64,000 bases of DNA from Falsochrobactrum shanghaiense (GTDB lineage: Bacteria > Pseudomonadota > Alphaproteobacteria > Rhizobiales > Rhizobiaceae), in assembly GCF_003149535.1 (NCBI RefSeq), contig NZ_QGDB01000002.1, positions 558,001-622,000 on the forward strand. The letters are read 5' to 3'. Made by a program: the position numbers and the translations under genes. Below are positions 16,702 to 59,421 of the stretch, in pieces (the stretch's first letter is position 1; every line of letters starts with the position of its first letter). Under the pieces are notes generated by a model. It ran no database searches and had not been told where the DNA came from. It saw only the letters and a program-made list of their open reading frames with translations.

Positions 16702-17622
16702 TCAGCCCTTCCCGATCTGCTCCAGATCGTAAGGGGTGGACTGGTACAATTCGTTGATCCAGTTTCCGAAAAGCAGATGCGCATGACCGCGCCAGCGATT
16801 TTCCGGTTTGCGGTTCACATCGTCATTGGGGAAATAATTCACTGGCAGCGCTGTATCCGGCTGAAGCTGCATATCGCGGAAATATTCGTCCGCCAGCGAT
16901 GTCGTGTCATATTCGACATGGTTGAACATATGCAGCGCGCGATGCTCCGGGTCGTCAAGCAGGCAAAGCCCGCTCTCCGCGCTATCGACCAGAATTTTCA
17001 ACTCGCTCCCGCCCGGAATATCGTTTTCGCGTACTTCCGTCCATCGGGAGACGGGAATCGCAAAATCATCCGAAAAGCCGCGCAGATAGGGCGATGACGG
17101 CGCAAGATTGCGCTGGCGGAAAACACCGACCAGTTTTTGCGGAAGCTCATATTTATCCATTCCATGGAAGTGATGAACCGCCGCCTGCGCTGCCCAGCAA
17201 ATATTGAATGTGCGGTGGACATGGGTTTGCGTCCAGTCGAAAATCCGCTGCATCTCGTCCCAATAGGTGACTTCCTCGAAAGGCAGCCGCTCGACCGGCG
17301 CGCCGGTAATCACAAACCCATCAAACCGTTCCTCTTTCACTTCTTCCCATGGACGATAGAAGGAAAGCATATGGTCGGCAGGCGTATGGCGAGCGACGTG
17401 ATTGGTGATGCGCACCAATGTCAGCTCCAGTTGAAGCGGCGTGGCGCCCAGAAGCCGCGCGATCTGCGTTTCGGTCGTCACCTTGTTGGGCATCAGATTA
17501 AGGAGGCCTATTCTCAACGGCCTTATATCCTGACGAATGGCGTCGGCCTCACGCATGACCATGACGCCCTCGGCTTCGAGAACGCTGGTTGCGGGCAGAT
17601 CGTCAGGAATTTTAATGGGCAT
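16702..17622 (-). CDS. metA: homoserine O-acyltransferase MetA (predicted acetyl-CoA dependent)
   Basis: A 306-residue member of the MetA family, catalysing the committed acylation of homoserine in methionine synthesis. The catalytic Cys142 lies in [18 protein letters not shown] and the catalytic His in HMFNHVEYD. Residue 111 is Glu ([14 protein letters not shown]). In characterised MetA proteins Glu111 goes with acetyl-CoA and Gly111 (E. coli) with succinyl-CoA, so an acetyltransferase is predicted. The start has an AAGGA site upstream. The leader at 17655-17770 looks like a SAM riboswitch, giving feedback by S-adenosylmethionine. Confidence 0.95.
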
Positions 17623-17654: not shown

Positions 17655-17770
17655 ACGCATGTGGCTTGATCCGTTTATTTGCCGGCTGGCCACATCCTTC
17701 CTGAAGGAAGTACCACCTTGCCCGGAGAGGCAGGTTGGCGTTGGGCGTCGCCCCAACTCTTGATGTATCG
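17655..17770 (-). promoter_or_regulatory. SAM-I-clan (S-box-like) riboswitch candidate in the metA leader
   Basis: Read on the minus strand, the metA leader carries ACATCAAGAG, a short hairpin TTGGG/CCCAA, CGCCAACCTGCC, a GCC/GGC stem, AAGGTGGTACTTCC, a CTTCC/GGAAG hairpin and then GATGT, which closes helix P1 with ACATC. Order and spacing match the S-box clan (ATCAAGAG, GGCAACC, AAGGTGnTAAnTCC), but P2 is short, as in the SAM-IV or SAM-I/IV variants. The 3' strand of P1 is also part of ATGTGGC (17695-17689), which can pair with GCCACAT (17665-17659), a plausible switch helix. I do not see the SAM-II consensus often found before alphaproteobacterial metA. Confidence 0.7.
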
Positions 17771-18023
17771 CTACTACTATCCAAATTCACATGCGCTGAC
17801 AAGTGCTTGCACGTCAGACCGGGCTGACGTGGTGGAATTTTATTCCCACACAGGCCATTGAGCATAGCGGCACATACAATGCCAGCCCCGCAAAGAGAAA
17901 ACGATGCCTTTTCAATTTGTTTGCGCTCCGAGGCGCGACGGGCCGATTACGGAACGATCCCACGGCCTGCGCGTTTCTCCTCATGGCTCGTCATGTTATA
18001 GTGGCGAAAAGGGAGGGAACAAA

Positions 18024-18479: not shown

Positions 18480-18604
18480 GGCCAGCCAGTGCTTTCTTCT
18501 GCCTGATCAGAATATGGCCTGATTTCATAGCAAGGCAAGACCTATCCTTATGCGGGATGCGTTCCAAGCTATTCGCAAATGCATATCTGCATTGCAGTAT
18601 CCGG

Positions 18605-18634
18605 CGTTGCAAGTAGTGCGTACCGCCCCTATCT
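18605..18634 (+). promoter_or_regulatory. RpoH-like promoter of the 18.64-kb small RNA
   Basis: CGTTGC at 18605-18610, a 17-base spacer, then CCTATCT at 18628-18634. This resembles the alphaproteobacterial sigma-32 pattern (TTG, then CnTATnT). It places the transcription start a few bases before the first hairpin of the small RNA, the same geometry as at 53835-53863. Confidence 0.5.
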
Positions 18635-18639
18635 AGAGG

Positions 18640-18762
18640 TTGTTCAGTTTTACTCCTCCCAGAAACTGGACATGAAGCGCGATACTCCTCCTCCCTATCG
18701 CGCTTTCCAGATCAGCCCGCTGCACACTTCCTCCTCCCGGTGCAGCGGGCGTTCTTTTTTGA
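18640..18762 (+). ncRNA. CTCCTCCC-loop small RNA (cuckoo / CcsR-like), copy 1
   Basis: Three consecutive stem-loops each display CTCCTCCC in the loop. Hairpin 1 (18644-18669) is CAGTTT/AAACTG. Hairpin 2 (18675-18705) is AGCGCGAT/ATCGCGCT. Hairpin 3 (18714-18760) is GCCCGCTGCAC/GTGCAGCGGGC followed by a T-run and acts as terminator. CTCCTCCC is complementary to GGGAGGAG, a Shine-Dalgarno-like sequence. This matches the described cuckoo RNA family of alphaproteobacteria (CcsR RNAs of Rhodobacter, alpha-r14-type RNAs of Sinorhizobium). No protein frame is supported here. The copy is not next to a DUF1127 gene. Confidence 0.8.
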
Positions 18763-18795
18763 TGGCTACCGCCCCGATTGCACGCGCATCAAACC

Positions 18796-19848
18796 CTATA
18801 TTTCTTCCTGTTTATCCTGTTCATTCCCAAACAAGGACCATGCCGCAATAAACATTGCCGCAATCATTGGTCCCACGACAAATCCGTTAATGCCCACCAG
18901 TGATATGCCACCGATTGTTGAAATCAGGATCACATAATCAGGCATGCGCGTGCCTTTGCCCACCAGCGGCGGGCGCAGCAGATTGTCGATCATGCCAATG
19001 ACCAGCACCCCCATAAGGATCAATATTGTTCCCCGGCCCCATTGACCGCTGAGAATGAACCATGTGGCCGCAGGCGCCCAGACCAGTGCCGCGCCGACGG
19101 CAGGCAGCATGGAACAAAACGTCATCACCACCCCCCACAGCAACGCAGCTTCTATGCCCAGCAGCCAGAAGGTAACGCCGCCGATCGTCCCCTGTATGAC
19201 CGCGATGATAATATTGCCCTTGACGGTCGCACGAATGACGGCTGCGAATTTATCGAGGAACTGGCGTGTATAATCATCGCTGAGCGGAATGGTTTTACGG
19301 ATCGTCGATCCCAGTTCCGCCCCGTCGCGAAACAGGAAGAAAAGCAGGTAGATCATGATGCCGAAGCTGATCAGGAATTGCGCGGTATTTTGCCCGAAGC
19401 TTACCAGACGGCTTGCAAAAAGCTGGCTGGCCTGCAAGGCGGCCGATGAAATACGCGAGCGCCACTCGGCAAAGCTGCCCAGTTCGAAACGCATCAGCCA
19501 TTCTTCCAGTGAATCGGGCAAGGCAGCCGTGATGCGTGAAATATAACTGTTCAGATCAAATTCCCGCGTGCTGAGACGTTGATAAAGGGAATTGCCTTCC
19601 TGAACCAGCGAGCCGAAAATCAAAAGCATCGGAATAATGACGAGACAAATGCACATCAATACCGACAACATTGCCGCGATATTGCGCCGGCCACGCAGCA
19701 TGCGCACCAGCCATTGCTGCACGGGATAGAAAATTATAGCGAGAATGATCCCCCATAAAACAGCCGAGTAATAGGGAATGAGCAGCCACGCGAAGGCTAT
19801 GGTAACCAGAGTCAGGAGAATGTAAAAGCTTGCGCGCTCAACGGACAT
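18796..19848 (-). CDS. AI-2E family transporter (PerM/DUF20-like permease)
   Basis: A 350-residue inner-membrane protein with seven or eight hydrophobic helices. Family signatures include the N-terminal AWLLIPYYSAVLWGIILAII, the central periplasmic segment rich in S/L/R, the LISFGIMIYLLFFLFRDGAE helix and the C-terminal MIDNLLRPPLVGKGTRMPDY block. Family members were named for autoinducer-2 export, but substrates are unknown in most cases, including ion or antiport functions. It is a single gene, convergent with the small RNA on its right in transcription terms, and has no visible partner. Confidence 0.88.
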   Translation of the reverse strand: MSVERASFYILLTLVTIAFAWLLIPYYSAVLWGIILAIIFYPVQQWLVRMLRGRRNIAAMLSVLMCICLVIIPMLLIFGSLVQEGNSLYQRLSTREFDLNSYISRITAALPDSLEEWLMRFELGSFAEWRSRISSAALQASQLFASRLVSFGQNTAQFLISFGIMIYLLFFLFRDGAELGSTIRKTIPLSDDYTRQFLDKFAAVIRATVKGNIIIAVIQGTIGGVTFWLLGIEAALLWGVVMTFCSMLPAVGAALVWAPAATWFILSGQWGRGTILILMGVLVIGMIDNLLRPPLVGKGTRMPDYVILISTIGGISLVGINGFVVGPMIAAMFIAAWSLFGNEQDKQEEI

Positions 19849-23582: not shown

Positions 23583-23676
23583 AACGTCCTCCCTGAATGG
23601 ATCCGCCCTCCATTCCGCATTGCATCACTGCCATGCAGCATTTTTTCGCAAAGCGCCCGCCTCTTTGCAGGCTTGA

Positions 23677-53867: not shown

Positions 53868-53981
53868 GGTGCTTACCGCTGCGTCTCCTCCCATTACGCG
53901 CGGTAAGTGTTCCCCTCTGGAGGTTTGCCTAAATGGCACCTTCATAACTTAGCCGGACTTTTCAGTCCGGCTCTTTTTTTG
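53868..53981 (+). ncRNA. CTCCTCCC-loop small RNA (cuckoo-like), copy 2
   Basis: Hairpin 1 (53872-53907) pairs CTTACCGC with GCGGTAAG and GCG with CGC, presenting CTCCTCCC in the loop. A second weak hairpin is CCTC/GAGG, and the RNA ends in the perfect terminator at 53951-53981. Only one CTCCTCCC copy is present, unlike the three in the other two RNAs of this window. It lies in the 419-base gap between the FrnE-like gene and gcvP, which has no supported protein frame. Confidence 0.72.
53951..53981 (+). terminator. rho-independent terminator of the 53.87-kb small RNA
   Basis: A perfect 9-bp stem AGCCGGACT/AGTCCGGCT with a four-base loop is followed by CTTTTTTT. Confidence 0.93.
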
Positions 53982-58498: not shown

Positions 58499-58684
58499 CC
58501 CCTCTGTCTCAAGCCTGAGAGACTTGCGTGGCTCTATATAAAGCCACACTTACACCTTCGGCGCGGGGTTTCCCCCGACTTTCCAGAGTTGTCTTACCCG
58601 TCTGCGGTTCCTTGTACCTGAGAGATTTCGGGCGATTTCCCCTTCGGCGGCTGATTTTGTCAGCTCTCTCCCGCAGACCGACAG
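58499..58684 (-). promoter_or_regulatory. tandem glycine riboswitch upstream of gcvT
   Basis: On the minus strand two aptamers follow each other. The first runs from GCGGGAGAGAGCTGAC through GCCGCCGAAGGGG and CTCTCAGGTACAAGGAACCGC-like bases; the second from GACAACTCTGGAAAGTC through GCGCCGAAGGTGTAAG and CTCTCAGGCTTGAGACAGAG. The repeated GCCGAAGG and CTCTCAGG blocks and the short linker are diagnostic of gcvT-type glycine riboswitches. It should switch gcvTHP on when glycine is abundant. Confidence 0.95.
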
Positions 58685-59074
58685 TGCAAGAACGCATATA
58701 TATTGCAGCGTTCCGGCACCCGACTTATGTCCCATAACCCAATCCGCTTGAGGAGTCATGCGGAATTGTTGTCTTCAGCCGACAAATACCCGGGCTTTTG
58801 CGACAATATTTTGCACATAGCCGGGCCGAATTCTCATGTCCTGTCGTCACGCATCGCGACTGGTGGGGCGACTGGTGGGACAGTCTGAAAAATTGCGATC
58901 TATTCAGTAGACCAGATGATTGTGATGGCATGATGGCCAAACTGGGCAAAAGGGGTGCAATCGACAAGCTTTAACGCAGGGCAGCTATGCAAATATGGCC
59001 CTCCAATTCAGCGGGCATCGGACCTATATGCTGTTTGCAACAAGAGATTAAGATTTTTACTTAGGGTGAGAGAA
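58685..59074. other. intergenic region between gcv riboswitch and DUF1127 gene
   Basis: 390 bases without a supported gene. It must hold the gcv promoter (minus) and the promoter of the DUF1127 gene (plus). No clear RpoH-type element is visible here, unlike the other two small-RNA loci. Confidence 0.4.
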
Positions 59075-59263: not shown

Positions 59264-59421
59264 CAGGACCGCAATTCCAACGCTGTGCGGTCCTCCAGTT
59301 TCACAGTTGTCACCGGGGTCTCCTCCTCCCATCCCTGGTGATCGAAAGGCCGGAACTCCTCCTCCCAATCCGGTCTTCCCGATAACACCCGTCGCTCCTC
59401 CCGCGACGGGTGTTTTATTTT
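59264..59421 (+). ncRNA. CTCCTCCC-loop RNA in the DUF1127 3' region (cuckoo / CcsR-like), copy 3
   Basis: After the DUF1127 stop there is a plain hairpin (GGACCGCA/TGCGGTCC, 59264-59295) and then three stem-loops with CTCCTCCC in the loop: TCACC-GGG at 59310-59342, GGCCGGA/TCCGGTC at 59349-59375, and the terminator ACCCGTCGC/GCGACGGGT at 59387-59412 followed by TTTTATTTT. It is probably cotranscribed with DUF1127 and processed. The T-run abuts the 3' end of the convergent ridA gene. Confidence 0.82.

What the first reader, a model, noticed from the sequence alone, without database searches (positions are those of the whole stretch)
18605..18762. Three-hairpin CTCCTCCC small RNA with its own RpoH-like promoter
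Each of three hairpins exposes CTCCTCCC, complementary to GGGAGGAG ribosome sites. The last hairpin is the terminator. A TTG/CCTATCT promoter sits directly before hairpin 1. The architecture matches the cuckoo/CcsR family, here as an orphan not attached to a DUF1127 gene.
Basis: partly seen in the sequence, partly recalled or inferred. Interest (0 to 1): 0.82.

Follow-up and report, generated by a model that had tools for sequence, protein, structure and literature searches.

The report
Stress-type small RNA blocking ribosome sites

Summary
Three hairpins with loop CTCCTCCC lie at 18642-18750, followed by six T. Rfam places 18635-18755 in RF02344 (ar14/alpha-r14, the cuckoo or NfeR1 family) at 73.1 bits, cut-off 58.8. 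The fold is far stronger than shuffles (z -8.5) and the stems covary over 22 copies. It is a further copy of a known RNA family and is not attached to a DUF1127 gene. The genome holds five ar14 matches, four above the cut-off. The core promoter GTTGCA-N16-CCTATCT is conserved in its lineage (19 of 22), slightly closer to the published RpoH1 than the RpoD consensus; the sigma factor is not settled. The addition is a likely site for the LysR regulator LsrB/VtlR at 18580-18594: 13 of 15 letters of the published Brucella motif, at the spacing reported for abcR1. Within one mismatch it stands before 37 of 39 DUF1127-free copies examined, and reversed 79-103 nt ahead of the DUF1127 start in 26 of 26 operon copies. 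In other genera it is a minority feature. Best reading: a LysR-activated anti-Shine-Dalgarno sRNA. New member of a known kind.

The parts
18580..18595 (+). putative LsrB/VtlR (LysR-type) activator site TGCATATCTGCATTGC, about -62 to -47 from a start at 18642
   Evidence: 18581-18593 match the published consensus GCAT-N3-TG-N3-T exactly; 18580-18594 match 13 of 15 of the published Brucella motif, 0 of 300 mononucleotide shuffles; conserved in relatives
18606..18634 (+). core promoter GTTGCA-N16-CCTATCT, RpoH1-like or RpoD-like
   Evidence: sequence; pattern kept in 19 of 22 lineage members
18642..18760 (+). inferred ar14-family small RNA (start inferred from the -10 position and hairpin 1)
   Evidence: Rfam RF02344 at 18635-18755, 73.1 bits; fold; covariation
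18642..18671 (+). hairpin 1, loop with CTCCTCCC at 18653-18660
18674..18706 (+). hairpin 2, loop with CTCCTCCC at 18688-18695
18715..18760 (+). hairpin 3 with CTCCTCCC at 18731-18738, then a T run: terminator-like
59305..59418 (+). second ar14 RNA of the window, downstream of a DUF1127 gene
   Evidence: Rfam 85.9 bits
59075..59221 (+). DUF1127 gene ahead of the second ar14 RNA
   Evidence: PF06568 match G000:C12:617081-617188; start read and agreeing
58976..58991 (-). LsrB/VtlR-type site upstream of that DUF1127 gene, reverse orientation
53871..53978 (+). ar15/AbcR-type RNA with one CTCCTCCC; no forward match to the LsrB/VtlR consensus in the 200 bases before it
   Evidence: also not among the hits

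Best explanation
A free-standing trans-acting small RNA of the ar14 (alpha-r14, cuckoo/NfeR1) family, about 119 nt. Shown here: family membership, three hairpins with covarying stems and exposed anti-Shine-Dalgarno loops, a terminator-like end, a conserved core promoter and a conserved LsrB/VtlR-type site at activator distance. Inferred: the LysR-type regulator encoded beside one abcR gene in this genome activates it; RNA polymerase with RpoD or RpoH starts it near 18641-18642; the three loops pair redundantly with GGGAGGAG-type ribosome-binding sites and stop translation of a set of mRNAs rich in transporter genes.
For: Rfam hit above cut-off; fold z -8.5; covariation; ar14 in 78 of 81 genomes drawn across the family, own genome included. 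Mechanism from print: NfeR1 silences targets through three redundant aSD motifs and is activated by LsrB (PMC10746234, section 5 and passages; PMC7143759, section 10). Site: exact in 26 of 39 DUF-free copies and within one mismatch in 37 of 39; mononucleotide shuffles give means of 0.05 and 1.1, maxima 1 and 5. Commonest-base frequency in the window's lineage: 0.85 over -57 to -39, 0.69 over -115 to -75, 0.51 in the promoter spacer. In this genome TGCATNNCTGNNNTGC has 7 hits, 5 at one abcR and the four ar14 units above the cut-off; reversed control 0. That abcR promoter holds the published motif letter for letter beside a 301-aa LysR-type ORF; PMC12595884 (passages) gives VtlR as 301 aa, next to trxB and abcR2. 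GGGAGGAG 4-9 nt before ATG: 13 places, control 0; 5 of the 8 proteins scanned are transport proteins.
Against: No expression, binding or target data for this locus. The pattern was drawn by me from the five sites it then finds, so that count shows specificity, not independent proof. The copies are related by descent. Outside the genus the site is a minority feature: of 16 DUF-free copies 3 exact and 6 within one mismatch (one, L173 at -70, may be chance), and of 14 DUF copies 1 in reverse orientation; reverse matches also stand before 3 of the 16 DUF-free copies. In the genus set, reverse matches also occur somewhere in the 400 nt before 7 of 39 DUF-free copies. The weak fifth own match and L134 lack the proximal site, and one DUF copy (L098) has a one-mismatch match there. 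The C1:230180 copy scores 10 of 15 on the published 15-mer, no better than shuffles (129 of 300), although it fits the looser consensus exactly. The LysR ORF passes no NCBIfam cut-off among the 25 models shown, so its name rests on place and length. GGGAGGAG before ATG marks strong ribosome sites whether or not an sRNA uses them.
Confidence: 0.75

Rival explanations
1. [quoted passage not shown]
For: GTTGCA-N16-CCTATCT fits CTTGAA-N16-CCTATAT at 4 of 6 and 6 of 7 with the exact spacing; against RpoD (CTTGAC-N17-CTATAT) it fits 3 of 6 and 5 of 6. In the lineage most copies have CTTGTA or CTTGCA with CCTATTT or CCTATCT. CcsR has an RpoHI/RpoHII promoter (PMC10253847, figure legend), and AbcR2 of S. 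meliloti depends on RpoH1 (PMC8844928, passages).
Against: RpoD and RpoH predictions overlap (PMC3616915, passages). The stretch upstream of a groES-type gene of this genome holds CTTGAC-N16-TCTATCT, so CTATCT alone does not tell them apart. NfeR1 is reported as sigma70-driven (PMC7143759, section 10). The LysR-type site is conserved beside the core.
Confidence: 0.3
2. A weakly expressed or eroding extra copy: in S. meliloti only one of six NfeR1-family copies was reliably seen by northern blot.
For: PMC7143759 section 10; loop 1 is 3 nt short here, and relative L093 has a changed loop 1.
Against: Compensatory changes and conserved promoter over 22 copies; all three CTCCTCCC loops intact here.
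Confidence: 0.15
3. A coding region (ORF 18579-18851, 90 aa) rather than an RNA.
For: Open frame listed.
Against: No Pfam match; variation follows base pairs, and single-base gaps occur among relatives.
Confidence: 0.02

Closest known systems
alpha-r14 family, Rfam RF02344 (RFMSmelA075/RFMSmelA099; cuckoo RNA)
   Same: three hairpins, aSD loops, variable stems, several copies per genome, terminator-like last hairpin
   Different: loop 1 has ACTCCTCCC rather than CCTCCTCCC; otherwise no difference seen
NfeR1 of Sinorhizobium meliloti
   Same: same RNA architecture, stand-alone, LsrB-type site upstream at a similar distance
   Different: the likelier NfeR1 counterpart in this genome is the copy at C1:230180 (its start GTCATTGAG resembles the GTCATCGAG and ATCATCGAAG starts of site-bearing copies in other genera); the window copy has a different core promoter. 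S. meliloti NfeR1 itself was not compared
CcsR1-4 / CIN1 locus of Rhodobacter sphaeroides
   Same: related aSD-loop stress RNAs; RpoH-type promoter reported there, RpoH-like core here
   Different: CcsR RNAs are co-transcribed with the DUF1127 gene ccaF1; this copy has no such gene
AbcR1/AbcR2 (ar15, RF02345)
   Same: aSD loop motif, transporter mRNAs as targets, LsrB/VtlR control of one of the pair
   Different: different Rfam family and hairpin layout

Membership tests
alpha-r14 / RF02344 | covariance model score above the curated cut-off | tested here: met
   73.1 bits against 58.8
alpha-r14 / RF02344 | three hairpins with unpaired aSD motif in each loop and variable stems | tested here: met
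   loop 1 has 8 of the 9 letters of CCTCCTCCC
alpha-r14 / RF02344 | several copies per genome | tested here: met
   5 matches, 4 above cut-off
alpha-r14 / RF02344 | expressed as a discrete stress-responsive transcript | not testable with these tools
   no RNA data
NfeR1 ortholog | own promoter with an LsrB-type site upstream | tested here: met
   site at 18580-18595 by sequence; binding untested
NfeR1 ortholog | being the ortholog rather than a paralog | tested here: inconclusive
   C1:230180 group looks closer by its 5' sequence; S. meliloti NfeR1 itself was not compared
CcsR / CIN1 | co-transcription with a DUF1127 gene | tested here: not met
   no DUF1127 in the 400 nt upstream; neighbours DUF488 and AI-2E
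RpoH regulon | RpoH-dependent start | tested here: inconclusive
   core sequence fits RpoH1 slightly better than RpoD; dependence untested
LsrB/VtlR regulon | binding site and dependence on the regulator | tested here: inconclusive
   site present by sequence; binding and dependence not testable here

The most novel reading that the evidence does not exclude
In this genus one LysR regulator (VtlR/LsrB) commands nearly the whole anti-Shine-Dalgarno RNA arm: one abcR, both kinds of free-standing ar14 RNAs and the DUF1127-ar14 operons. The strongly VtlR-dependent small DUF1127 genes reported in Brucella would then partly be the leaders of aSD RNA operons, and part of the vtlR phenotype could come from those RNAs. 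The window copy would be a two-input version, joining the LysR site to an RpoH-like core.
Probability: 0.5. Interest if true: 0.55.

Novelty: new member of a known kind. Interest (0 to 1): 0.33.

Why it matters
The RNA itself is ordinary for its lineage. The shared LsrB/VtlR-type site is the useful part: published VtlR work names three DUF1127 proteins and AbcR2 as the main targets and reports that supplying them did not restore virulence of the vtlR mutant (PMC12595884, passages). If ar14 RNAs ride on such operons and also stand behind separate LysR-driven promoters, that accounting leaves out a set of regulators able to silence many mRNAs at once.

Tried and rejected
Coding ORF over the RNA: no family match and base-pair-wise variation. 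RpoH as settled: the groES and HSP20 upstream stretches gave no clean contrast with RpoD. My first expression for the core promoter had the wrong spacing and returned 0 of 65; corrected. The lineage rule also took in 11 DUF1127-attached copies (33 rows); I dropped those 11 by name, leaving 22, and 19 of 22 is counted on these. The site is not a universal ar14 feature (30 loci, the best-scoring copy of 30 genomes of other genera, so not a random draw). Two other hits of the site pattern: C1:691659 reads like a coding region (not tested further) and window 23621 lies between two ABC-transporter genes; no ar14 match is near either. Two own DUF1127 genes without aSD motifs in the 700 nt downstream have no consensus site upstream; one has an 11-of-15 match to the published motif. 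Synteny beside the AI-2E gene is limited: of 29 loci, 5 (L006, L008, L009, L011, L025) show the RNA by a CTCCTCC-cluster search of the whole loci. The region read left out L027 (its held DNA ends inside the gene) and L031. Four of the 29 are Gammaproteobacteria. Absence elsewhere may be relocation or loss. PMC9751625 (review of Brucella sRNAs) gave no passage for four words tried.

Full report
What is there. The window has three hairpins between 18642 and 18750, each with CTCCTCCC in its loop, then TTTTTT at 18755-18760. The fold is 8.5 standard deviations better than dinucleotide shuffles. Rfam's RF02344 (ar14) matches 18635-18755 at 73.1 bits, cut-off 58.8. A second ar14 RNA lies at 59305-59418 and an AbcR-type (ar15) RNA at 53871-53978. 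The whole genome has five ar14 matches, four above the cut-off, and two ar15 matches.

Conservation. ar14 was found in 45 of 60 genomes of the relatives search and in 78 of 81 genomes drawn across the family, the own genome counted in both; 0 of 14 control genomes in both. From the capped list I fetched 60 copies from 17 genomes, chosen by genome and not at random; with the five own copies that makes 65. By a protein pattern in the 400 nt upstream, 26 follow a DUF1127 gene and 39 do not. The window's copy belongs to a lineage of 22 DUF-free copies that share stem sequences. On their alignment 95.0% of cells pair, 11 of 32 pairs change on both sides, and the covariation score is 0.297 (shuffles 0.166, slid controls at most 0.073); the count of further pair types does not exceed shuffles.

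Core promoter. GTTGCA-N16-CCTATCT at 18606-18634. The pattern [CG]TTG-N18-CCTATnT stands in 19 of the 22 lineage members (20 if CTTATTT of L093 is allowed) and in 0 of 15 members of the other free-standing lineage, to which C1:230180 belongs. The published consensuses are RpoH1 CTTGAA-N16-CCTATAT and RpoD CTTGAC-N17-CTATAT (PMC8844928, passages). The window core fits RpoH1 at 4 of 6 and 6 of 7, RpoD at 3 of 6 and 5 of 6. The paper on S. meliloti start sites says that the two predictions overlap and that many RpoH predictions are likely false (PMC3616915, passages).

LysR site. The quoted LsrB/VtlR consensus GCAT-N3-TG-N3-T (PMC8844928) matches 18581-18593 exactly, and the Brucella motif CAATGCAGCCATGCA (quoted in PMC12595884, passages) matches 18580-18594 in 13 of 15 letters on the reverse strand; none of 300 mononucleotide shuffles of the 400 nt upstream did as well. 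With a start at 18642 the consensus lies at -61 to -49, where PMC8844928 reports it in the abcR1 promoter. In the 39 DUF-free copies the consensus is exact in 26 and within one mismatch in 37, at -64 to -48 from the Rfam start; in the 26 DUF1127 copies 0 exact and 1 within one mismatch at that place. All 26 DUF1127 copies have an exact match in reverse orientation, starting 255-383 nt upstream of the RNA and ending 79-103 nt before the first in-frame ATG of the DUF1127 frame; reverse matches also occur somewhere in the 400 nt before 7 of the 39 DUF-free copies. Mean commonest-base frequency over -57 to -39 is 0.85 in the window's lineage and 0.95 in the other; over -115 to -75 it is 0.69 and 0.53, over -38 to -30 it is 0.58 and 0.88, in the spacer 0.51 and 0.67. 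One abcR of this genome (at C40) holds the published motif exactly, 63 nt before its Rfam start, next to a 301-aa ORF that matches LysR models, none of the 25 shown above its own cut-off; that a trxB lies beside it is my reading. In Brucella papers the regulator-linked copy is called abcR2, in S. meliloti abcR1. Two own DUF1127 genes without aSD motifs downstream have no consensus site.

Outside the genus. I examined 30 loci, the best-scoring copy of 30 genomes of other genera. Of 16 DUF-free copies 3 have the consensus exact and 6 within one mismatch at -75 to -45, and 3 have a reverse match further up; of 14 DUF copies none has the proximal site exact and 1 has a reverse match. So the arrangement is not a family-wide rule; in this genus it covers nearly all ar14 units examined.

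Mechanism. For NfeR1, three redundant aSD motifs block translation at ribosome-binding sites of several mRNAs, many for transporters, and LsrB activates transcription (PMC10746234, section 5 and passages; PMC7143759, section 10). The same loops and the same kind of site are here. In this genome GGGAGGAG 4-9 nt before ATG occurs 13 times, reversed control 0. One place is the complement of an ar14 RNA, two open no frame above 52 aa, two more were not scanned, and the 8 scanned are two periplasmic binding proteins, an ABC permease, an ABC ATPase, an MFS protein, an acyl-CoA dehydrogenase, a hexapeptide protein and a 5-formyl-THF cyclo-ligase. This suits the model but does not show targeting, since such sites are strong ribosome sites in any case.

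Against known systems. It is an ar14 RNA by every defining feature that could be tested. It is not a CcsR/CIN1 unit, because there is no DUF1127 gene. Whether it is the NfeR1 ortholog is open; C1:230180 looks the likelier one. In print (held library): ar14 structure and copy number (PMC3927594, section 21 and passages), LsrB on NfeR1 with a conserved upstream stretch whose first alignment also covered Brucella homologs (PMC10746234), VtlR on AbcR and on small DUF1127-type genes (PMC12595884, PMC7486931, passages). The reference list of PMC11975290 names a paper on a LysR regulator controlling numerous small RNAs in A. tumefaciens, which I have not seen. I did not find the statement that VtlR sites stand before the ar14 units of this group (searches; listings, and passages of the papers named), but key papers are not held, so I do not claim that it is unpublished.

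Noticed in passing
17665-17771 (-): Rfam SAM-I/IV riboswitch upstream of a homoserine O-succinyltransferase gene (16702-17622, -).
   Followed up: no
58595-58683 (-): Glycine riboswitch aptamer.
   Followed up: no
53871-53978: AbcR-type RNA with CTTGAA about 17 nt before CCATATG upstream, RpoH-like, and no forward LysR consensus match in the 200 bases before it; the other AbcR copy of the genome (C40) has the LysR-type site. This resembles the AbcR1/AbcR2 split of S. meliloti.
   Followed up: partly
23621-23636: Match to the LysR site pattern between two ABC-transporter genes; probably chance.
   Followed up: partly
L039 (C22:411845): DUF1127-attached ar14 copy with an extra upstream aSD hairpin and one loop that has lost the motif (CTCACTCCCC).
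   Followed up: no
relatives, for example G001:C2:1477799-1478625: Divergent pairs of ar14 RNAs about 585 nt apart in several genomes, and neighbouring same-strand copies in other genera.
   Followed up: no
L008, L009, L011, L012, L025, just upstream of the ar14 RNA or, in L012, of its empty place: A conserved GC-rich hairpin-like block ending in a T-rich run, not identified.
   Followed up: no
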